This document shows positions 13,568-23,319 of a DNA stretch of 64,000 nucleotides, piece after piece. Below the pieces are notes generated by a model, which saw nothing but the letters and a program-made list of their open reading frames with translations, had not been told where the DNA came from and made no database searches. The stretch's first letter is position 1. Each line of letters begins with the position of its first letter. Position numbers and translations under genes: made by a program. This DNA comes from Chthoniobacterales bacterium (GTDB lineage Bacteria > Verrucomicrobiota > Verrucomicrobiia > Chthoniobacterales > DASVRZ01): contig JBDSQB010000016.1 of NCBI GenBank assembly GCA_039930045.1, positions 1-64,000 of the forward strand, given 5' to 3'.

Positions 13568-15355
13568 TCATTTCCGGAACGAACGCCACCAGCCGTCGTC
13601 GCGGGTGTGCTCGTGGTGCAGACTGCGCATCCGCGTGGAAAGCAGACTGGTGCGACTGAGATAGCCAACGAGTTTTTTCGCATCAGAGCGATCCACCACG
13701 AGCAGCCGCCCGACACCGTGCTGGAGCATCCGCGCCACGGCGTCGTGCATGGATTCCTCGGGATAAGCCGTGACGAGTCGCGTGCTGCCGATATAGCTCA
13801 AACTCGCCTCAGAATTTCCCAACGACCGGAGCAAGTCGTGGCGCGTGACGATTCCCGCAAGCTGCCCGGCGGCATCGACCAGAGGCCAGGCTTGATAGGC
13901 GGAAATCTCCGGGTCGTGACGCGAAATTCTTTCCGCTAGTTCGCCGACTGTGGTGGTCGCTCCGAGCGTGCGAATTTGCGTGTCCATGAGTTGCGCGACG
14001 GTCGCCTGATGAAACACATCCGCCTCAAAGTCGTCTGGAATTTTTAGTCCACGGCGGGCGATTTTCTCAGTCATGATGGAGTTTTTCATCAGCATCCGGG
14101 CCGTCAGAAAAGCCAGCGCCGACCCCGCCAGCAACGGCAGCAAACCATTCGGCTGCAGCGTCGTTTCAAAGGCGAAAACCACCGACGCCAGCAAGGCCCG
14201 CGAAGCTCCCGCAAAGACCGCCGCCATGCCGAGCAAGCTGGCGACCCGCACATCCAGCCCGCTCGCCGGAAATAAGGTTAGGAGAAACGCGCCGAGCACA
14301 TTTCCCGCTCCGCTGCCGATAGTTAGGAGTGGAGCGAGAGTGCCGCCCGAAGTGCCGCTGCCGAGGGAGATCGCCCAGGAAATGAATTTCATCACGCAGA
14401 GAAACGCGATCGCATTCAGCGGCAGGCGATTGCAGAGGATGTCGGAGATATTCGTGTAACCCACGCCTAAAGTGCGCGGCGCAAACCAGCCGATCACGCC
14501 CACCGCGACCGCGCCGATGGCCGGCCACCACATCCAGTGAATCGGTAGCAACTCAAATGCATCCTCGATCCAGTAAACTGCCCTCGTCACGCCGACCGCG
14601 AGCACTCCCATCGCTATCCCGATGAGCGCGTAAAATCCGAGTGCCGTGAGCGACACCGGAGCCAGCGCTGGCATCGCAAAAATCGCCTCCGCTCCCTCGA
14701 AATGGATGCGCATTCCCGCTGCCGTCGCCGCCGCCAGTGCGACGGGCACCACAGAGCGCGGACGAAATTCAAAAAGGAGCAATTCCACCGCTAGCAAGAC
14801 GGCGGAGATCGGGCTGCCGAAGATCGCGGCCATGCCAGCGGCGGCTCCCGCAGCGAGCAGGGTTTTTCGTTCCGCCGCCGTGGTGCTCAGGATCTGGCCA
14901 AGCAACGATCCGATCGCTCCGCCCGTGGCAATGATCGGGCCTTCCGCTCCGAACGGCCCGCCGGTGCCGATGGAAATCGCGGCCGAGATGGGTTTCAGAA
15001 GAACGATGCGCGCCGGGATGCGACTGTGGTTTTCCAGCACCTGCTCCATCGCCTCGGGAATGCCGTGGCCGCGAATCGCCTTCGACCCGTATCGCGCCAT
15101 CAGACCGACTAACAAACCGCCGATCACGGGAACAACGATGACCCATGCGCCGAGATGATTTCCGGCAGGCGAGACAAACTCGGTGGAGATGCGTCCATAG
15201 AAAGAGAGGTTCGTCACCAGCCCGATCAATCGCGTCAAAGCCTGCGCGACAAACGAACTAATCACGCCCAGCACAACCGCAATGGCCGAGATAAAGATGA
15301 AAGTCCGGTGTTCGCTGACCGGCGCTGAGTGCGTGGAAACGTGAGTCGAGTTCAA
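13568..15355 (-). CDS. ClC-family chloride channel/antiporter with CBS pair
   Basis: The protein has 595 residues with about 10-12 membrane helices, followed by a C-terminal CBS pair (from VAQLMDTQIRTLG on). ClC signature segments are GHGIPEAM (96-103), GGPFGAEGPI with the gating Glu138, and GSGTSGGTLAP. The gating Glu is present, so either Cl-/H+ exchange or a gated channel is possible. The ATG overlaps the stop of marR (15352-15355), so this is the second gene of that operon. It converges on the metal ATPase with a 17-bp gap. Confidence 0.92.
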   Translation of the reverse strand: MNSTHVSTHSAPVSEHRTFIFISAIAVVLGVISSFVAQALTRLIGLVTNLSFYGRISTEFVSPAGNHLGAWVIVVPVIGGLLVGLMARYGSKAIRGHGIPEAMEQVLENHSRIPARIVLLKPISAAISIGTGGPFGAEGPIIATGGAIGSLLGQILSTTAAERKTLLAAGAAAGMAAIFGSPISAVLLAVELLLFEFRPRSVVPVALAAATAAGMRIHFEGAEAIFAMPALAPVSLTALGFYALIGIAMGVLAVGVTRAVYWIEDAFELLPIHWMWWPAIGAVAVGVIGWFAPRTLGVGYTNISDILCNRLPLNAIAFLCVMKFISWAISLGSGTSGGTLAPLLTIGSGAGNVLGAFLLTLFPASGLDVRVASLLGMAAVFAGASRALLASVVFAFETTLQPNGLLPLLAGSALAFLTARMLMKNSIMTEKIARRGLKIPDDFEADVFHQATVAQLMDTQIRTLGATTTVGELAERISRHDPEISAYQAWPLVDAAGQLAGIVTRHDLLRSLGNSEASLSYIGSTRLVTAYPEESMHDAVARMLQHGVGRLLVVDRSDAKKLVGYLSRTSLLSTRMRSLHHEHTRDDGWWRSFRK

Positions 15356-15774
15356 TTCGATTCCTCCAGAGTTTGCAGCATGGAGCGCAAGGCTGGCCCG
15401 AGACGCGCCAGCTCGGATTTATGAGCGGAGGAAAGGTTTTCCAGCATTCGCTGTCCCTCCGCCGTAAGCCGGAGCGAGACCTTGCGGCGGTCGCTGGCGT
15501 CTGGCTCCTTGGTAATGAGCCCGGCGCTACGCATGCGTTCGACGAGCCCGACCGCGCTGTGATGTTTGATTTGCAGGTGCGCCGCCACTTCGCCGACTGT
15601 CACCGCCCCGGCTGGCGGACAGGCTCCGATGACTAGCAGCGTCTGGTGTTGTTGTGGGGCGATGCCCTCCGCCAGCGCCGCCTCCTCACTGAAGCGGAGG
15701 AATTCCCTCAGTGCTTTGCGAAACGCGGCCAGCGTCTGATAATCCTGCTGGGAGACTGGCTTCAACCGCGACAT
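15352..15774 (-). CDS. MarR-family transcriptional regulator
   Basis: A 140-residue protein with the MarR winged helix. Helix-turn-helix region: VTVGEVAAHLQIKHHSAVGL; wing: GLITKEPDASDRRKVSLRLT. The N- and C-terminal helices should make the dimer. It precedes the ClC transporter with a 4-bp overlap, so it probably represses its own operon. A candidate operator palindrome lies 12 bp upstream of the ATG. The ligand is unknown. Confidence 0.9.
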   Translation of the reverse strand: MSRLKPVSQQDYQTLAAFRKALREFLRFSEEAALAEGIAPQQHQTLLVIGACPPAGAVTVGEVAAHLQIKHHSAVGLVERMRSAGLITKEPDASDRRKVSLRLTAEGQRMLENLSSAHKSELARLGPALRSMLQTLEESN

Positions 15775-15845: not shown

Positions 15846-16232
15846 TCAGGCCGGTTTGCAGTTGAGTTCCATCCAACTGGCAAACTCCGCTTCCGACATT
15901 TCGCGAGCGGCGAGTGCGAGCGTTTTAATCACCGATTCGGCCTCATCGGCGAAGAATTCGCAGCCATTTCTTTCCAGAAAACCGGCACCCAACATGAAGC
16001 CAGTGCGTTTGTTTCCGTCGATGAACGGATGGTTTTTCACGACTCCCGCCGCGTAAGCCGCCGCCATTTCCACTAGGGAAGGTTGCCCGTAGGAAAAAAG
16101 CTGGCGCGGTTTGGCGAGCGCCGATTCGAGCATATTGTCGTCGCGAATCCCGGCCATGCCGCCGTGTTGGGCCAGCATCATATCGTGTAACGCGAGACAC
16201 TCGTCGCGACCAAACCAATACGGTTCAGTCAC
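15846..16232 (-). CDS. doc: Doc-type (Fic/Doc fold) toxin
   Basis: A 128-residue protein with the death-on-curing core HPFIDGNKR (His68-Arg76). In Doc toxins this core phosphorylates EF-Tu and arrests translation. The N-terminal GGMAGIRDDNMLESALAKP and AAAYAAGVVKNHPF segments are typical of chromosomal Doc proteins. Its start overlaps the antitoxin stop (16229-16232). The core is intact, so it may be active. Confidence 0.9.
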   Translation of the reverse strand: MTEPYWFGRDECLALHDMMLAQHGGMAGIRDDNMLESALAKPRQLFSYGQPSLVEMAAAYAAGVVKNHPFIDGNKRTGFMLGAGFLERNGCEFFADEAESVIKTLALAAREMSEAEFASWMELNCKPA

Positions 16233-16891: not shown

Positions 16892-17517
16892 CAGCGCAAA
16901 TCGGTGGTGAGCCGAACCTCGGAAACTTTGTCGAGTCCAATGATCGCCTGCAACGCGGCGATCGCCTGGTCTGCAGTCAATTCCGGGCTGCCGAGGACGA
17001 CGCTGCCGGAGTTGCAGCTATATTTCCAAGTCGTGGCGCGCAGGCCAGCCGCCGACTGGAGCCGCGCGTGAATGCCCGAGGTAATGATCGCGTCCTCCAT
17101 CAGCGACGGCGGTGAATCGCTCAGGCTCAGACGGCGCATCGGAGTCACCCGCCATTCGCGGGCGGAAAGCCGGGTCACACGCCAATTGGAAATCTCGGAC
17201 GGCAGATCAGCCGAACGTCGTTTGACCTGCGTGTCTTGAGTCGGTGGCGCGGGTTGGGGAACCATCTGCCGCGTCACCGGATGACCCGACGGTTGGAGCG
17301 GAATCGGGGCCGGAATGGCCGGCTCCTGCGCCAGCGTCGGCTTCTTCCCTGGAGCGAGAAAAGCATTCGCCGGCGACCCATTGGCTTGGGCAGCGGTTTG
17401 CGCGGGAGATTTTTTCCCATTCGTCTGGCAGCCTGCAAGTGAGAGCAGGAGGATGAACAGGAAAGTGAGCGCGCGGATTTTCTGAATGGACGCTGAGCGG
17501 GGCGGTGTGTTTACCAT
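16891..17517 (-). CDS. Lipoprotein with a BON-like C-terminal domain
   Basis: From ATG 17517 the protein starts MVNTPPRSASIQK and has a lipobox (LLLSLAGC), so it should be lipidated and envelope-bound. A Pro/Gln-rich linker spans about residues 40-105. The last 60 residues (SGIHARLQSAAGL, a short beta pair with GSVVLGSPE, then AIAALQAIIGLDKVSEV) resemble a BON domain, which binds membrane lipid or glycan. That assignment is by pattern only. An ATG at 17631 is also in frame but would bury the signal. The start region overlaps the divergent LysM gene. Confidence 0.65.
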   Translation of the reverse strand: MVNTPPRSASIQKIRALTFLFILLLSLAGCQTNGKKSPAQTAAQANGSPANAFLAPGKKPTLAQEPAIPAPIPLQPSGHPVTRQMVPQPAPPTQDTQVKRRSADLPSEISNWRVTRLSAREWRVTPMRRLSLSDSPPSLMEDAIITSGIHARLQSAAGLRATTWKYSCNSGSVVLGSPELTADQAIAALQAIIGLDKVSEVRLTTDLR

Positions 17518-17524
17518 GAGAGTG

Positions 17525-18241
17525 ATGCAAGGAAGTCTGAAACGAGAACACCGGTGGCGCAGCGTTTCACACCTGACTGGGATCGCCGTCATTTTATTCA
17601 GCTTCACTGCCTGTGAGCAAGTCGTCCGCAAGCACGACGCAAAATTATTGCAGGAAGCCAGTCAGGCCAACCAGCGCGGGGATTATGTCGCGGCGCTGAA
17701 TCTTTACGAGGCTGCCCTCGACGACTCCACCGCCTCCGCCGACATCCATTTCCAGATGGCGCTCATCTGCGAAACGAAATTGCACGACCCCCTCGCGGCG
17801 CTCTTTCACTTCCGGCGCTGCGAACACGTCTTCCCGCGAGGGCCGCACGCTGCCGAGGCCCGGAAATCCTGCGAACGCCTTGAGCCCATGGTCGTCAGTG
17901 CGCTTTCCAAGGAAAACATGCTCTCCAAAACGGACGCCGTCATCCTGAAAAACGAAGCGCAGACCCTCCGCAAACAAATCCTCCAACTCAAGGCTCAGCT
18001 CGCCGCCGTGCCGCGCCCGGTCGCTGATAAAAACGCCAAAAACTCCGAGCCCGACCCCGAGTTGCTCAAGAAAATGGGCGGCCGCACCTACGTCGTCGAG
18101 CCCGGCGACACCCTGGAAAAAATCTCGCGCAAACTCTACAAAAACAAAGGCCGCATCCAGGACCTCGCCGACGCTAACATCAACAACCTGCCCAATCCGA
18201 AGAAACTCCAAGTCGGCCAGACCCTCATCGTCCCGCCGTAG
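17525..18241 (+). CDS. LysM-domain envelope protein with TPR-like region
   Basis: From ATG 17525 the N terminus is basic and hydrophobic and ends in FSFTACEQ, a possible lipobox. A helical, TPR-like stretch follows (HDAKLLQEASQANQRGDYV, then ALNLYEAAL), then a coiled-coil-like segment (KNEAQTLRKQILQLKAQLAA). The C-terminal 50 residues form a LysM domain (YVVEPGDTLEKISRKLYKN, then LQVGQTLIVPP) that should bind peptidoglycan. Other in-frame ATGs are at 17486 and 17516. The divergent lipoprotein starts at 17517, so the 5' ends touch or overlap. Confidence 0.8.
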   Translation: MQGSLKREHRWRSVSHLTGIAVILFSFTACEQVVRKHDAKLLQEASQANQRGDYVAALNLYEAALDDSTASADIHFQMALICETKLHDPLAALFHFRRCEHVFPRGPHAAEARKSCERLEPMVVSALSKENMLSKTDAVILKNEAQTLRKQILQLKAQLAAVPRPVADKNAKNSEPDPELLKKMGGRTYVVEPGDTLEKISRKLYKNKGRIQDLADANINNLPNPKKLQVGQTLIVPP

Positions 18242-18314: not shown

Positions 18315-19319
18315 GTGACCACTTCTTCTCAAAAAACAGCGATCATTGCTGCGTCGGTGTTGTCGGTGCTCGGGTTTTTTCAACTGGTCGTCGTGGTTAT
18401 CGTTCTGGTCCGCCATCCCAATGGAACTCCGATCGCAACGGCAGTTCGCCCAGATTCGACTTTAACTCCGGTCGCTCCGACAGCTTCGGCGACAGCCAGG
18501 AAAACTCCGGTGCCTGCAGACGCGGCCAACATCGGTCCTGATAACACGCCCGATCTGCCAGAGGCGGCGGTGGCTCCGTCGGAGGTCGATATTTTGGTCA
18601 AGCGCGCGACCGACATTCGGGCGAAGGGCGACATGACCGGCACGCTCGCCAGCCTGCGCGATGCGCAGAAGTTGTATCCCGATAATCCGAAAATCGTCGC
18701 CGAGTTTGCCACGACTTACGAGCAAATGGGCCTCGTGGACAAGGCGCTCGCCCAGTGGAAGCGCGTGGCGGATTTCGGCGACAAAGCGGGGGATCTCTAT
18801 GGTGTCGCCGCCGAAAAAGTGCACGCCGGACTGTCTCCGAAAGAGCCGCTCTCCGGGCGCGACGAGGAGGGATTGCAACTCGGCTCGACTCTGGGTTTTA
18901 CGGATGTGCAGAAGAATTACGAAAGCTCGGGCGATGCCGAAAAGGTGAGCCTGCGCATGGGGATCAAGGCCCGCTCGGGTGCGGCGATCACGGCGTCGGA
19001 TGTGAATATTCAGGCGATGTTTTACGATTTGGTGGACAACAAGGACGTGCAGCCGACCGATCCGCACGCGACTCGTGTGACATCGGAATGGCTGACGGTG
19101 CCCGCCGATTGGAAAGAGGACGGCGTGGAGGTGCTGAAGGTGCGTTATGAGCAAAAACCTCCCGCGTCCGGCGAGAAACCTGCTGTGGAAAGAAAATATC
19201 TCGGCTATATCATCCGGGTTTACTATGAAAATGAATTGCAGGATGTGATGGCGGACCCGGTCCGTCTCCTCCAGACTTTTCCACCCCCTGTTAGTTTGCA
19301 GAAAGAAATCCCCCAATGA
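18315..19319 (+). CDS. Single-pass membrane protein with TPR-like region, function unknown
   Basis: The GTG start at 18315 gives a short N terminus followed by one transmembrane helix (about 8-32: TAIIAASVLSVLGFFQLVVV). A Thr/Pro/Ala-rich linker and a helical TPR-like part (ASLRDAQKLYPDNPKIVAEF and MGLVDKALAQWKRVAD) follow. The C-terminal half (about 175-330) looks beta-rich and includes SLRMGIKARSGAAITASDVN. I do not recognise this domain. The stop overlaps the start of the large receiver/pseudokinase gene (ATGA at 19316), which suggests the two products work together. Confidence 0.75.
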   Translation: MTTSSQKTAIIAASVLSVLGFFQLVVVVIVLVRHPNGTPIATAVRPDSTLTPVAPTASATARKTPVPADAANIGPDNTPDLPEAAVAPSEVDILVKRATDIRAKGDMTGTLASLRDAQKLYPDNPKIVAEFATTYEQMGLVDKALAQWKRVADFGDKAGDLYGVAAEKVHAGLSPKEPLSGRDEEGLQLGSTLGFTDVQKNYESSGDAEKVSLRMGIKARSGAAITASDVNIQAMFYDLVDNKDVQPTDPHATRVTSEWLTVPADWKEDGVEVLKVRYEQKPPASGEKPAVERKYLGYIIRVYYENELQDVMADPVRLLQTFPPPVSLQKEIPQ

Positions 19320-21724
19320 AGATACTGGTCGTCGATGATGAAGAAATCATAGTGGAGTCATTGGTCGAAATCATTCGATCCTACGGAGATTTCACGGTGG
19401 AGGGTGTGTTGAGCGGTCCCGATGCGCTGGCCAAGGTGGATGAAATGGGCGGCATCGATCTGCTGATCACGGATGTGGTGATGGATCGGATGGATGGTTT
19501 TGCGCTGCGCGATGTGCTGCGAAGGATGCACCCCAAGTTGCATGTGATTTTTGTGACGGGCTATGATTTGAGCGACTACGCGGCAAACGTGGGCGAGGCG
19601 TTGATCCTGTCGAAGCCGATCCAGTCCACGGCGATTTTGCAGGAAGTCCACCGTGTATGGGAGGAGATCGAGGGATTGGGCGTGGGTTCTACGCAACCCG
19701 AGCCCTCCACGGCGGTGTTTGCCGCGCCGACGAGCACGGCGGAACTGACACCGGTGATCAAGGCGGAGCCGACGGCGGCAACCTCGACCGATCTGCGGGC
19801 GCTGGTGCAGAAGCAGGGTTTCACGGGGCAGCTCGATCAATTTCAGCTCGTGGACATTATTCAAATGTGCTGCATGAGCCGGCGCACGGGGCGTCTGCGC
19901 GTGTCGCATGGGGTGGAGAGCGGCATTATTTATCTGAGGGAAGGAAACATGACGCACTGCATCGTCGGCGATCTGCGCGGCGAGCACGGCGTGTATAAAA
20001 TCATCGGCTGGGACGTGGGGCAGTTTACCTTCGAATACGGCATGGTGCCCGAGGAGCAGACGATCATGGTGGGCTGGGAACATCTCGTGATGGAAGGCTG
20101 CCGCCGCCGCGACGAGAGCGGGGAGGGGCAGGAGATGCTCACCGAGGCCGAGCGCAGCCTGGTCGGCAAAGTTTTGGGCGATTATGAAGTCGTCCGCAAG
20201 CTGGGCGAGGGCCGCTGGGGCGAAACTTACGAGGCGATCCAGGCTTCCGTGCGCCGTCCGGTAGCGATGAAAGTCCTGCGCGCCGATCTGGCGAACGAAG
20301 GCAGCATGGTCCAGGAATTTGTGGCCGACGCCAGCACAAAGGCGAACGTGCAACATCCGTCGATCGTGTCGGTCTTCGAGGCTGGGCAATCCAATGGGCT
20401 CTATTTCTACACTCGCGAATATATCGACGGGGCGACTCTGGCAGATTATCAGGCGCAGGGAGCGGTGATCGACGACCAGACAGCGTTGAAAGTCATCCGG
20501 GTCGTGGCGGAGGCGTTGTCCTATCTCAGCCAGGGGAAAGTGCCGCGCAGCCTGCTTTCGGCGAAAAGCATTTACATCGCCAATGACGGCCGTCCGCGCC
20601 TGGCGAATCTGGCTCATGTGAGGCACGATTCCGAGGCTGTCGTGCAACGGGAAATCCAGGAGTTGTCCCGAATCGTGAGCGCTACCATGCAAGGCGCGGT
20701 CGGGGCGTCGCCCGGGATGCGGGCGATGCTGTCACGGATGCGGATCGACGGCGCGGGCGGGTTCCTTTCCTATGGCGCTCTGCTGCAAGGGGTGAAAGCA
20801 CTCGAACCCAACGTCGTCCCGGCGGAGGCCTTTAAGATGAACGAGCGCGACCGCGCCGCGATCAAGGCGGTCGAGGCCGCCAAGAAACAGCAAAAGCGCA
20901 CGATGCTCTACTCGACCATAGGGATGTTCATTCTGCTCTGGCTGGTCGCAGGGACGTTCTACGTGAAGTTCATCCGCCCGCGCTCGAAGGTGACCAACGT
21001 TCTCGTGAAAGTCCCCGCCGGGCCATTCATTTATCAGGACGGCAAGACCCTCAGCCTGCCCGATTTCTGGATCGACAAATACGAGGTGACCATCGCGCAA
21101 TACGCCGCTTTCCTGGAAGCGTTGGAGAAAAATCCCACGACGAAATACGACGCGCCGAGCCAGCCGAAAGGCAAGTCGCACACGCCGAAGGATTGGGAGC
21201 GTTTCTATGTGCAGGCGCGCAAGGCGAAGACGTTTGAGTTTGCCCCGATCAACCTCGATACCCCGATTTTTAACGTCGATTGGTACGACGCCTACGCCTT
21301 TGCCAAATGGGCCGGACGCCGTCTGCCGACCGAGCAGGAATGGGAAAAAGCCGCCCGCGGTCCAAACGGCAATCTCTACGCCTGGGGCAACACCTTCGAC
21401 ACATCGAAATTGAACTCAAGCGCCGACTACAATAGCGATCCGCGCGTCGAGGGAACCAAGGACGGCTACAATCGCTGGGCTCCGGTCGATAAACATCCCA
21501 CCGATAAGAGCGAATATGGCGCGCTCGACATGACGGGTAACGTCTCCGAATGGACCGCCTCTACGGAGCGCGTGATGGGATTCGACACGCCGGTGATTCG
21601 CGGCGGTTCCTTCCGGTTGCCCGATTACGAATTGACCAAGCGACGACTGGACCTTTTGCAGGAACAAGCGACCATGTCGGTGGGTTTCCGGACTGTCTCG
21701 GACACGCCGCCCGCCGCCAAATAG
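19316..21724 (+). CDS. Receiver-PATAN-pseudokinase-TM-FGE-like fusion protein
   Basis: An 802-residue fusion. Residues 1-122: response receiver with Asp53 (LLITDVVMD) and Lys in LSKPIQ. About 165-260: DUF4388/PATAN domain (GFTGQLDQFQLVDIIQMC, IIYLREGNMTHCIVG). About 288-500: Ser/Thr kinase fold with Gly loop GEGRWGETY and Lys319 (VAMKVL). In place of HRDLKP it has P410-R411-S412-L-L-S, and in place of DFG it has N431-L-A, so both catalytic Asp residues are missing. About 530-553: one transmembrane helix. About 562-802: FGE/SUMF1-like fold (PDFWIDKYEVT, GRRLPTEQEWEKAARG, LDMTGNVSEWTA, IRGGSF, VGFRTVSD) with no Cys, so it cannot be a formylglycine-generating oxidase. The cytoplasmic part probably senses phosphorylation and the outer part binds a ligand; this is inference. 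Confidence 0.88.
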   Translation: MKILVVDDEEIIVESLVEIIRSYGDFTVEGVLSGPDALAKVDEMGGIDLLITDVVMDRMDGFALRDVLRRMHPKLHVIFVTGYDLSDYAANVGEALILSKPIQSTAILQEVHRVWEEIEGLGVGSTQPEPSTAVFAAPTSTAELTPVIKAEPTAATSTDLRALVQKQGFTGQLDQFQLVDIIQMCCMSRRTGRLRVSHGVESGIIYLREGNMTHCIVGDLRGEHGVYKIIGWDVGQFTFEYGMVPEEQTIMVGWEHLVMEGCRRRDESGEGQEMLTEAERSLVGKVLGDYEVVRKLGEGRWGETYEAIQASVRRPVAMKVLRADLANEGSMVQEFVADASTKANVQHPSIVSVFEAGQSNGLYFYTREYIDGATLADYQAQGAVIDDQTALKVIRVVAEALSYLSQGKVPRSLLSAKSIYIANDGRPRLANLAHVRHDSEAVVQREIQELSRIVSATMQGAVGASPGMRAMLSRMRIDGAGGFLSYGALLQGVKALEPNVVPAEAFKMNERDRAAIKAVEAAKKQQKRTMLYSTIGMFILLWLVAGTFYVKFIRPRSKVTNVLVKVPAGPFIYQDGKTLSLPDFWIDKYEVTIAQYAAFLEALEKNPTTKYDAPSQPKGKSHTPKDWERFYVQARKAKTFEFAPINLDTPIFNVDWYDAYAFAKWAGRRLPTEQEWEKAARGPNGNLYAWGNTFDTSKLNSSADYNSDPRVEGTKDGYNRWAPVDKHPTDKSEYGALDMTGNVSEWTASTERVMGFDTPVIRGGSFRLPDYELTKRRLDLLQEQATMSVGFRTVSDTPPAAK

Positions 21725-21733
21725 TTTTCCCCT

Positions 21734-22585
21734 ATGTTTAATCGTCTTCTCATTCTGCTGGCAGTCGTTTGCCTCGGCCAGACCGCTAGCGGTCAGATGC
21801 AAGTCTCCCTCGAGATGACGCGCTCGCTCTACATGATGAACGAGCCCGTGCTGGCAAAAATCTCCATCACCAACCTCAGCGGACGCGACCAGAATTTCGC
21901 CGACGCGCCGGGGAAACCGTGGTTCAGCTTCGAGATTTTTGCGGGCAAGGACAGCCTGATTCCGCCGGTGAATCCCGATTATCACCTTGGCGAACTCTAC
22001 GTTCCGACGGGGAAAACCGTCACCCGCAATATCAATGTAACTCCGCTCTACGGCCTCCAGGAATACGGGCCGCACAGCATTCGCGCCGTGCTTTACGACA
22101 AGGACAAGGACCAGTATTACACCTCGGCGCGCCGGGCGTTTGAGATCACCGAGGGCCTCCTCCTCTGGAAACAAAGCGTCGGAGTTCCCGCGGAAAACAG
22201 CACGCACACTTACTCGCTGCTCACCCATCGACTGCCGGCGGAAAACCGCCTCTACGTCCGCATCATCGACGACACCGGGAGCCGGGTTGTTTCCTGTTTT
22301 TCCATCGGACGCGTCCTCTCTTTTTCGCCGCCCGAGCACGTTCTCGACAGCCAGAATAATCTCCACGTCCTGCAAATGGTCGGGCCGAAGGCGTATCTCT
22401 ACACCTCGATCACGCCCAATGGGGACATCGTTTCCCGCGACCCTTACATTGATGGCCGGTCCAATCCGCATCTCGTTCGCAATGAAAATGGCGAGGTGCG
22501 CGTGCGTGGCGGCAAGATGGAGTCGGCCGTGCCTGCGGAAAAGAAACGCAACATTCCGCGTCTCTCGGATCGTCCTCACATCTAG
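21734..22585 (+). CDS. Secreted protein of unknown function
   Basis: A 283-residue protein with a signal peptide (MFNRLLILLAVVCLGQTASG, then QMQV). The next about 130 residues look like an immunoglobulin-like beta domain (VLAKISITNLSGRDQNFADA, and TVTRNINVTPLYGL). A second region about 150-260 contains SLLTHRLPAENRLYVRIIDD and VLDSQNNLHVLQMVG. I do not recognise a family. It starts 9 bp after the pseudokinase fusion and lies just before an amidase, so it is likely part of the same envelope operon. Confidence 0.7.
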   Translation: MFNRLLILLAVVCLGQTASGQMQVSLEMTRSLYMMNEPVLAKISITNLSGRDQNFADAPGKPWFSFEIFAGKDSLIPPVNPDYHLGELYVPTGKTVTRNINVTPLYGLQEYGPHSIRAVLYDKDKDQYYTSARRAFEITEGLLLWKQSVGVPAENSTHTYSLLTHRLPAENRLYVRIIDDTGSRVVSCFSIGRVLSFSPPEHVLDSQNNLHVLQMVGPKAYLYTSITPNGDIVSRDPYIDGRSNPHLVRNENGEVRVRGGKMESAVPAEKKRNIPRLSDRPHI

Positions 22586-22683
22586 CGAGTCACAGGAAAA
22601 TAGAGGAAGTGGCGACTCCCATCTTGACCCTGCGGACATTTCCACGGATAGGAGAACGTCCTGACGGCGCGGCTGTTCGGGGC

Positions 22684-23319
22684 ATGGCCAATCTCATGAA
22701 TCGCGCACGACTCCTCACCTTCCTCGCGGGCATCCTGCTCGCCTTCGGCTGGCTGCCAAATCTACAGGCCGATTCGCTGCGCAACTTCAGCACCGTCGTC
22801 ATCGACGCGGGCCACGGCGGCCACGATCGCGGCGGCATCCCAGGCAACTACGTCACCGAGAAAACCGTCAATCTCGACGTCGCCGCGCGTCTCTCGCAGA
22901 AACTCCGCGCTGCCGGTCTGCGCACCGTCATGACCCGCTCCGACGACACTTTCATTCCGCTCAGTGGCCGGGTCGCCGCCGCCAACTATCGTTCGGGTTG
23001 CATCTTCGTCTCAGTCCACTTCAACTCCGCTCCAAACCGCGACGCGCGCGGCATCGAGACCTACTTTTATTCGTCGAAATCCTACCCGCTCGCCGCCGCC
23101 ATTCATCGCCGGGTCATCACGGTGGCCGCCGAGGACCGCCACATTCGCCAGCGCGGTTACTACGTTTTGAGAAACTGCCGGGCGCCTGCGGTGCTGGTCG
23201 AATGCGGCTTCCTCACCAACCGCGAGGACGGGCGGCTCGCCCTCAGCGCCAGCTACCGCGACCGGCTCGCCAGCGAAATCTCGCGGGGCATCCTCGCCGC
23301 CCGCCGGAGCAGTTACTAG
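22684..23319 (+). CDS. N-acetylmuramoyl-L-alanine amidase, Amidase_3 family
   Basis: A secreted zinc amidase that cuts the bond between the stem peptide and muramic acid in peptidoglycan. After a signal peptide (about residues 5-30, ending near NLQAD) the catalytic domain shows VVIDAGHGGHD (zinc His), TEKTVNLDVA (zinc Glu), SVHFNS (zinc His) and VLVECGFLTN (catalytic Glu). No cell-wall-binding repeat is present. ATG 22684 is my choice; ATG 22696 is close and an upstream GTG at 22609 would bury the signal peptide. It ends the envelope cluster that also holds a LysM protein. Confidence 0.88.
   Translation: MANLMNRARLLTFLAGILLAFGWLPNLQADSLRNFSTVVIDAGHGGHDRGGIPGNYVTEKTVNLDVAARLSQKLRAAGLRTVMTRSDDTFIPLSGRVAAANYRSGCIFVSVHFNSAPNRDARGIETYFYSSKSYPLAAAIHRRVITVAAEDRHIRQRGYYVLRNCRAPAVLVECGFLTNREDGRLALSASYRDRLASEISRGILAARRSSY

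What the first reader, a model, noticed from the sequence alone, without database searches (positions are those of the whole stretch)
19316..21724. Transmembrane receiver-PATAN-pseudokinase with a Cys-free FGE-like outer domain
One chain joins a two-component receiver, a PATAN domain, a kinase fold, a membrane helix and an FGE/SUMF1 fold. The kinase keeps the ATP-binding Lys319 but lacks both catalytic Asp residues (S412 in the HRD position, N431 in the DFG position). The FGE-like part has no Cys at all. Neither enzyme activity is expected, so the protein looks like a phosphorylation-sensing scaffold that signals across the membrane. The start overlaps a membrane-anchored TPR-like gene, and a secreted protein and an amidase follow, which suggests an envelope-control unit.
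Basis: partly seen in the sequence, partly recalled or inferred. Interest (0 to 1): 0.75.

Follow-up and report, generated by a model that had tools for sequence, protein, structure and literature searches.

The report
Membrane pseudokinase with inactive FGE domain
This gene encodes a membrane-spanning protein built from worn-out enzyme parts, a dead protein kinase inside the cell and a dead formylglycine-enzyme fold outside, which recurs across the bacterial phylum Verrucomicrobiota between the same two envelope genes and therefore looks like their regulator or scaffold rather than an enzyme.

Summary
Window 19316-21724 encodes an 802-residue receiver-PATAN-kinase-TM-FGE chain. The kinase lacks the HRD and DFG aspartates and, more decisively, the whole activation segment: 14-18 residues from DFG to helix F, against 30-52 in intact kinases of the same genome. 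None of 87 orthologues is intact. The FGE part lacks both catalytic Cys columns in all 87, but so do the genome's other FGE hits.

Phosphorylation sensing is not shared by the family: the full receiver site survives in 18 of 70 members, though it is intact here. The amidase is an occasional neighbour (8 of 80 loci).

The TPR gene (U1) lies upstream in 72 of 76 loci. In the order, U1 occurs in 79, the secreted-protein gene (D1) in 78 and X in 51 of 97 genomes, X never without D1. X is sometimes reduced to receiver-PATAN, or missing, while U1-D1 stays. Best reading: a non-catalytic transmembrane adaptor of a U1-D1 envelope module.

The parts
19316..21724 (+). Gene X: receiver-PATAN-pseudokinase-TM-FGE-like protein, 802 aa
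   Evidence: orthologues; model
19316..19675 (+). Receiver domain (residues 1-120); phosphorylation site intact here (D7, D8, D53, T81, K100)
   Evidence: Pfam Response_reg E 5.8e-17; site tally
19799..20119 (+). PATAN/DUF4388 domain (about residues 162-268)
   Evidence: Pfam DUF4388 E 4.8e-20
20177..20815 (+). Pseudokinase domain (about residues 288-500): K319 kept, L413 for HRD Asp, N431 for DFG Asp, activation segment deleted
20900..20974 (+). Single transmembrane helix (about residues 529-553)
   Evidence: Hydrophobic stretch; helix 510-553 in the model
21002..21706 (+). FGE-like domain (about residues 563-797), no Cys
   Evidence: Pfam FGE-sulfatase E 1.2e-40; column tally; PDB relatives
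18315..19319 (+). U1: TM helix, TPR, C-terminal beta-sandwich; overlaps the start of X by 4 bases
   Evidence: TPR_19, sub-threshold; 34 of 45 orthologues match TPR_19; model; next to X in 72 of 76 loci
21734..22585 (+). D1: secreted protein, signal peptide and N-terminal Ig-like region by sequence; no Pfam family
   Evidence: homologue just downstream in 50 of 80 loci, in 78 of 97 genomes of the order
22609..23319 (+). N-acetylmuramoyl-L-alanine amidase (Amidase_3); optional neighbour
   Evidence: Pfam E 7.5e-47; in 8 of 80 loci

Best explanation
X is a non-catalytic, single-pass membrane adaptor that works on a conserved envelope module made of U1 (membrane-anchored, TPR plus beta-sandwich, inferred periplasmic) and D1 (secreted, Ig-like). 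Shown: X is a pseudokinase without activation segment in the whole family; its FGE-like part lacks the catalytic Cys pair; within the order surveyed, full X occurs only in genomes with D1 and almost only with U1, and lies between them; U1-D1 persists where X lacks its FGE part, its kinase or its receiver, or is missing. Inferred: the FGE-like domain docks U1 and/or D1 outside the membrane, as the Cys-less FGE fold of PorK docks PorN; the pseudokinase is a cytoplasmic docking platform; in clades with an intact receiver, this one included, Asp phosphorylation and the PATAN domain tune the platform, and the state is passed through the TM helix to U1-D1.
For: Kinase: HRD Asp in 2 of 87, DFG Asp in 0 of 87 (Asn in 84), APE absent in all, DFG-to-helix-F length 14-18 against 30-52. 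In a larger set (114 rows, a few genes counted twice) DFG Asp is 0 and HRD Asp 2. The kinase fold remains. FGE: no Cys at the two catalytic columns (residues 768 and 773) in 87 of 87; it is the best conserved part, mean top-residue frequency 0.59 against 0.43 for the kinase. Operon: U1 adjacent in 72 of 76, D1 just downstream in 50 of 80. Order survey of 97 genomes: X 51, U1 79, D1 78; all 51 X genomes have D1 and 48 have U1; 65 of 66 same-contig U1-D1 pairs lie within 4 kb on one strand. Between U1 and D1, X is receiver-PATAN only in G018 and G036, receiver-PATAN-pseudokinase without TM/FGE in G440, receiver-pseudokinase-TM in G019, pseudokinase-TM-FGE without receiver in G407 (L114), and missing in G007 and in most of family f13. 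Precedents: PorK, a Cys-less FGE fold acting as docking hub (PMC12421860); MviN and EssB, transmembrane pseudokinase scaffolds (PMC12599244).
Against: No interaction was tested, and adjacency does not prove a complex. The roles of U1 and D1 are unknown; their periplasmic placement rests on a TM helix and a signal peptide. Direction of change (loss or gain of parts of X) was not inferred from a rooted tree. Lys319 is kept here and in about half the family, so nucleotide binding is not excluded. The count of genomes without X depends on an E-value cut-off: G440, counted as without X, has a shortened X. In G440 the DFG column reads Asp (LADIA, by eye), although its HRD reads HAP and the segment is short. 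Family f4 has PATAN-TM-FGE proteins with neither U1 nor D1, so relatives of the outer part exist outside the module.
Confidence: 0.6

Rival explanations
1. Structural part of an envelope or secretion machine: X is a fixed structural subunit (as EssB in type VII or PorK in type IX secretion), not a signalling protein, and the receiver is a docking relic.
For: FGE-like core is the most conserved part; receiver site lost in most members; EssB and PorK precedents.
Against: X is absent from many genomes that keep U1-D1, which does not fit an essential structural subunit; no further conserved gene family beside the unit came out of similarity clustering; NCBIfam GldK far below cut-off, 58 against 350 bits.
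Confidence: 0.2
2. Outside-in sensor: the FGE-like domain binds a periplasmic ligand (sugar, peptidoglycan fragment or peptide) and the pseudokinase passes this to a cytoplasmic partner; U1 and D1 present the ligand.
For: The FGE/C-type-lectin fold is often a binding fold (general knowledge); strongly conserved motifs in the FGE part; variable cytoplasmic side.
Against: No ligand known and no conserved cytoplasmic effector gene beside the unit; in G018 and G036 the part of X that is present is the cytoplasmic receiver-PATAN, not the outer domain.
Confidence: 0.15
3. Nucleotide-binding pseudokinase switch: Lys319 binds ATP and nucleotide binding sets the conformation.
For: Glycine loop and Lys319 intact in this protein; Lys in 40 of 87.
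Against: The Lys state changes at least 7 times on the tree and the glycine loop is degraded in most members, so it cannot be a shared mechanism.
Confidence: 0.05

Closest known systems
MviN/MurJ pseudokinase of Mycobacterium tuberculosis and the ActPs3 family (PMC12599244)
   Same: Bacterial transmembrane protein with a cytoplasmic pseudokinase, catalytic motifs degraded, activation loop deleted; many ActPs3 members have a TM after the kinase.
   Different: No receiver, PATAN or FGE-like part; a different phylum; MviN is a peptidoglycan-synthesis transmembrane protein; VAIK Lys kept in X here.
EssB/YukC of type VII secretion (PMC12599244)
   Same: Cytoplasmic pseudokinase in a transmembrane protein; scaffold without catalysis; shortened activation loop.
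   Different: No FGE-like outer domain and no receiver; belongs to a secretion system not seen here.
PorK/GldK of type IX secretion (PMC12421860)
   Same: FGE-like fold without the catalytic Cys pair, used as a docking hub in the envelope.
   Different: Outer-membrane-associated ring protein with large insertions; no kinase, no cytoplasmic part; NCBIfam GldK model matched far below cut-off.
PATAN-domain response regulators (PixE, LsiR, PixG; PMC7690835)
   Same: Receiver and PATAN domain in one chain; the receiver-PATAN-only forms in family f8 look like them.
   Different: The known ones act on or are thought to act on the type IV pilus apparatus; they carry no pseudokinase, TM or FGE-like part.
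SUMF2 (pFGE)
   Same: Best PDB sequence match of the FGE-like part (E 1.3e-23); from general knowledge a paralogue without FGE activity.
   Different: Animal protein without kinase or cytoplasmic part.
Bacterial kinases fused to FGE-type domains, for example the kinase-TM-FGE-type protein of this genome (G000:C7, L107)
   Same: Kinase, TM and FGE-type domain in one chain.
   Different: That one keeps HRD and an Asp in the DFG position (AHRDIKP...LADIG); X does not.

Membership tests
Hanks-type Ser/Thr kinase (active) | Kinase fold | tested here: met
   Pfam 5.1e-13; Foldseek to PknA/PknB E 1e-14
Hanks-type Ser/Thr kinase (active) | VAIK lysine and alpha-C glutamate | tested here: inconclusive
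   K319 present, D338 in the Glu column
Hanks-type Ser/Thr kinase (active) | HRD catalytic Asp | tested here: not met
   L413 here; Asp in 2 of 87
Hanks-type Ser/Thr kinase (active) | DFG Asp and activation segment with APE | tested here: not met
   N431; 0 of 87 with Asp; APE absent in all, segment 14-18 aa
Formylglycine-generating enzyme | FGE fold | tested here: met
   Pfam 1.2e-40; SUMF1 and SUMF2 in PDB search
Formylglycine-generating enzyme | Two active-site Cys | tested here: not met
   No Cys in the domain here; no Cys at residues 768 and 773 in any of 87. The placement of the human Cys columns is mine, from the GGS motif
PATAN response regulator | Phosphorylatable receiver plus PATAN domain | tested here: met
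   (D7, D8, D53, T81, K100)
ActPs3 / MviN pseudokinase | All motifs degraded, activation loop deleted, TM C-terminal to the kinase | tested here: inconclusive
   Activation-segment deletion and C-terminal TM are met, but the VAIK Lys is kept here
ActPs3 / MviN pseudokinase | Family-specific residues (dimer interface, bulky active-site residues) | not tested
   No ActPs3 profile was at hand; this is a resemblance, not membership
PorK/GldK | GldK profile at curated cut-off | tested here: not met
   58.3 against 350 bits, NCBIfam TIGR03525
EssB / type VII secretion | EssB profile match and T7SS genes beside it | tested here: inconclusive
   No EssB family among the Pfam matches; no T7SS search made

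The most novel reading that the evidence does not exclude
U1-X-D1 is an undescribed Verrucomicrobiota envelope apparatus in which a pseudokinase-TM-FGE-like protein carries a cytoplasmic receiver/PATAN signal to a periplasmic docking hub, with the kinase and FGE catalytic sites given up throughout and the receiver site given up repeatedly.
Probability: 0.35. Interest if true: 0.7.

Novelty: new variant of a known kind. Interest (0 to 1): 0.5.

Why it matters
Few bacterial pseudokinases have a known job. This family spans several families and orders of Verrucomicrobiota and comes with fixed neighbours, so partner and function can be tested directly. The natural series of forms between U1 and D1 (full, no receiver, no FGE, receiver-PATAN only, missing) is a ready-made set of domain deletions. 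It also joins two separately described kinds of repurposed enzyme fold, pseudokinase and Cys-less FGE, in one membrane protein.

Tried and rejected
Intact kinase in the same family: looked for in 87 distinct members, then in the widest set including long variants of 1000-1480 aa; none found. Catalytic FGE: rejected on the Cys columns. Membership in T9SS GldK: rejected on score. An amidase operon as the general context: rejected, 8 of 80 loci. Other conserved neighbours beyond U1 and D1: similarity clustering of flanking ORFs in 45 loci gave only clade-specific or antisense clusters. Phylum survey with 388 genomes: only three candidates per genome were scored, so its low tally (16) was not used. 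A first count of D1 by ORF start or domain start missed copies whose open frame begins inside X; the tblastn and genome counts are used instead. Papers: searches on pseudokinase with formylglycine-generating, on Verrucomicrobia with Ser/Thr kinase and sulfatase-modifying, and on Verrucomicrobia with pseudokinase gave no description of this family; the 2025 review of bacterial pseudokinase families contains neither FGE nor Verrucomicrobi-. Only open-licence papers were searchable. U1 fold search: only its TPR part matched plausibly (designed TPRs and P. aeruginosa LpoP, TM to target 0.6-0.8), not the beta-sandwich. My recollection that chlamydial Pkn1 carries an FGE-type domain was not tested; the review read does not mention it. 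Promoter and terminator pattern scan gave nothing usable.

Full report
1. The observation. The ORF 19316-21724 (+) encodes 802 residues. Pfam finds a receiver (3-111), DUF4388, also called PATAN (170-267), a partial protein kinase match (290-408) and an FGE-sulfatase domain (579-794), all far above chance. The AlphaFold2 model built on 71 orthologues has mean pLDDT 89, with low-confidence linkers between domains and one long helix at 510-553 that holds the hydrophobic membrane stretch. Foldseek puts the middle part on mycobacterial PknA/PknB; the outer part is closest by sequence in the PDB to SUMF2, CalU17 and SUMF1.

2. The kinase. I aligned 87 distinct orthologues from two searches with four kinases of the same genome that keep HRD and a DFG-position aspartate. 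In the family the DFG Asp is never present and is Asn in 84 of 87; HRD Asp is present in 2; the APE Glu is absent in all. The stretch from DFG to helix F is 14-18 residues against 30-52 in the four intact kinases, so the activation segment is deleted. A wider set of 114 rows, which includes long variants of other families and a few genes fetched twice, agrees. One further shortened copy (G440, L144) reads Asp in the DFG position but HAP for HRD; this was read by eye. The VAIK Lys is kept in 40 of 87 and changes state at least 7 times on the tree.

3. The FGE-like part. No member has Cys in the two columns that correspond to the catalytic pair (residues 768 and 773). Other columns hold Cys in some members, for example residue 649 in 35 of 87. 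The domain is the best conserved part of the chain. The three other FGE-type hits read in this genome also lack the pair, by eye, so Cys loss is not special here. Cryo-EM of PorK shows that a Cys-less FGE fold can be a docking hub whose former substrate groove binds a partner (PMC12421860).

4. The receiver. The focal protein keeps all five key residues. In the family 18 of 70 receivers do; 24 have Glu at the phospho-Asp column, 24 Asp, the rest other residues, with at least 9 changes on the tree. In L113 and L114 the receiver is gone. Phosphorylation may matter in this clade but is not the common function.

5. The neighbourhood. The upstream gene U1 overlaps X by 4 bases; D1 starts 10 bases after X. 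Among 80 named loci of Chthoniobacterales, Verrucomicrobiales and others, U1 homologues are adjacent or nearly so in 64 by tblastn and D1 homologues in 50; the amidase is found in 8. With a profile, U1 is adjacent in 72 of 76 loci with enough upstream DNA. U1 has an N-terminal TM helix, TPRs and a C-terminal beta-sandwich. D1 has a signal peptide and an Ig-like N-terminal pattern by eye; Pfam gives only insignificant Ig-like hits.

6. Which gene depends on which. In 97 genomes of the order, full X is present in 51, U1 in 79, D1 in 78. Every genome with X has D1; 48 have U1, and in two of the three others X lies at a contig end. Twenty-six genomes have U1 and D1 without full X. In 65 of 66 cases with both on one contig and strand they lie within 4 kb. 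What lies between them varies: the full chain; pseudokinase-TM-FGE without receiver (L114); receiver-pseudokinase-TM without FGE (G019); receiver-PATAN-pseudokinase without TM (G440); receiver-PATAN alone (G018, G036); nothing (G007, G452, most of family f13). Family f4 lacks U1 and D1 and has a PATAN-TM-FGE protein without kinase. So in gene content X goes with the module, while the module does without X. Whether the short forms are losses or earlier states was not settled with a rooted tree.

7. Mechanism. Shown: pseudokinase, Cys-less FGE-like part, fixed neighbours, one-way dependence in gene content. Inferred: membrane topology, docking of U1/D1 by the FGE-like domain, docking of a cytoplasmic partner by the pseudokinase, tuning by the receiver and PATAN where intact. 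I put the adaptor model at 0.6 and keep a structural-subunit role and an outside-in sensor as rivals.

8. Known kinds. Transmembrane pseudokinase scaffolds (MviN, EssB; PMC12599244), Cys-less FGE docking hubs (PorK) and PATAN regulators (PMC7690835) are each known. I found no description of this family or of the U1-X-D1 unit in the papers searchable here. I rate it a new variant of a known kind.

Noticed in passing
L108-L111 (G013, G003, G021, G030; family f4): PATAN-TM-FGE proteins of 424-473 aa without kinase, whose FGE part is 41-44% identical to this one; no U1 or D1 found in these genomes.
   Followed up: partly
L128:1585-4692 and L097:8172-11279: Next to an X copy lies a second receiver...FGE protein of 1036 aa with a GPRGGCGQT stretch that looks like a MinD/CpaE-type P-loop after the receiver (by eye, not tested).
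   Followed up: no
L120 and L121 (G478, G502): X variants of 1466-1478 aa with about 900 residues before the pseudokinase; Pfam finds at most a weak receiver there.
   Followed up: partly
G000:C7:32500-36000 (L107): Same genome has a kinase-TM-FGE-type protein that keeps HRD and the DFG-position Asp.
   Followed up: partly
window 15846-16232 (-): Small Fic/Doc-like ORF with HPFIDGNKRTG motif (by eye), possibly a death-on-curing type toxin, beside a MarR-like ORF (15352-15774).
   Followed up: no
window 17486-18241 (+): TPR plus LysM protein just upstream of U1 (LysM E 8e-12); not found in any of the 80 named loci.
   Followed up: partly
window 20606-20608 (residue 431) and the same column family-wide: The DFG Asp column is Asn in 84 of 87 members, a conserved non-catalytic residue whose role is unexplained.
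   Followed up: partly
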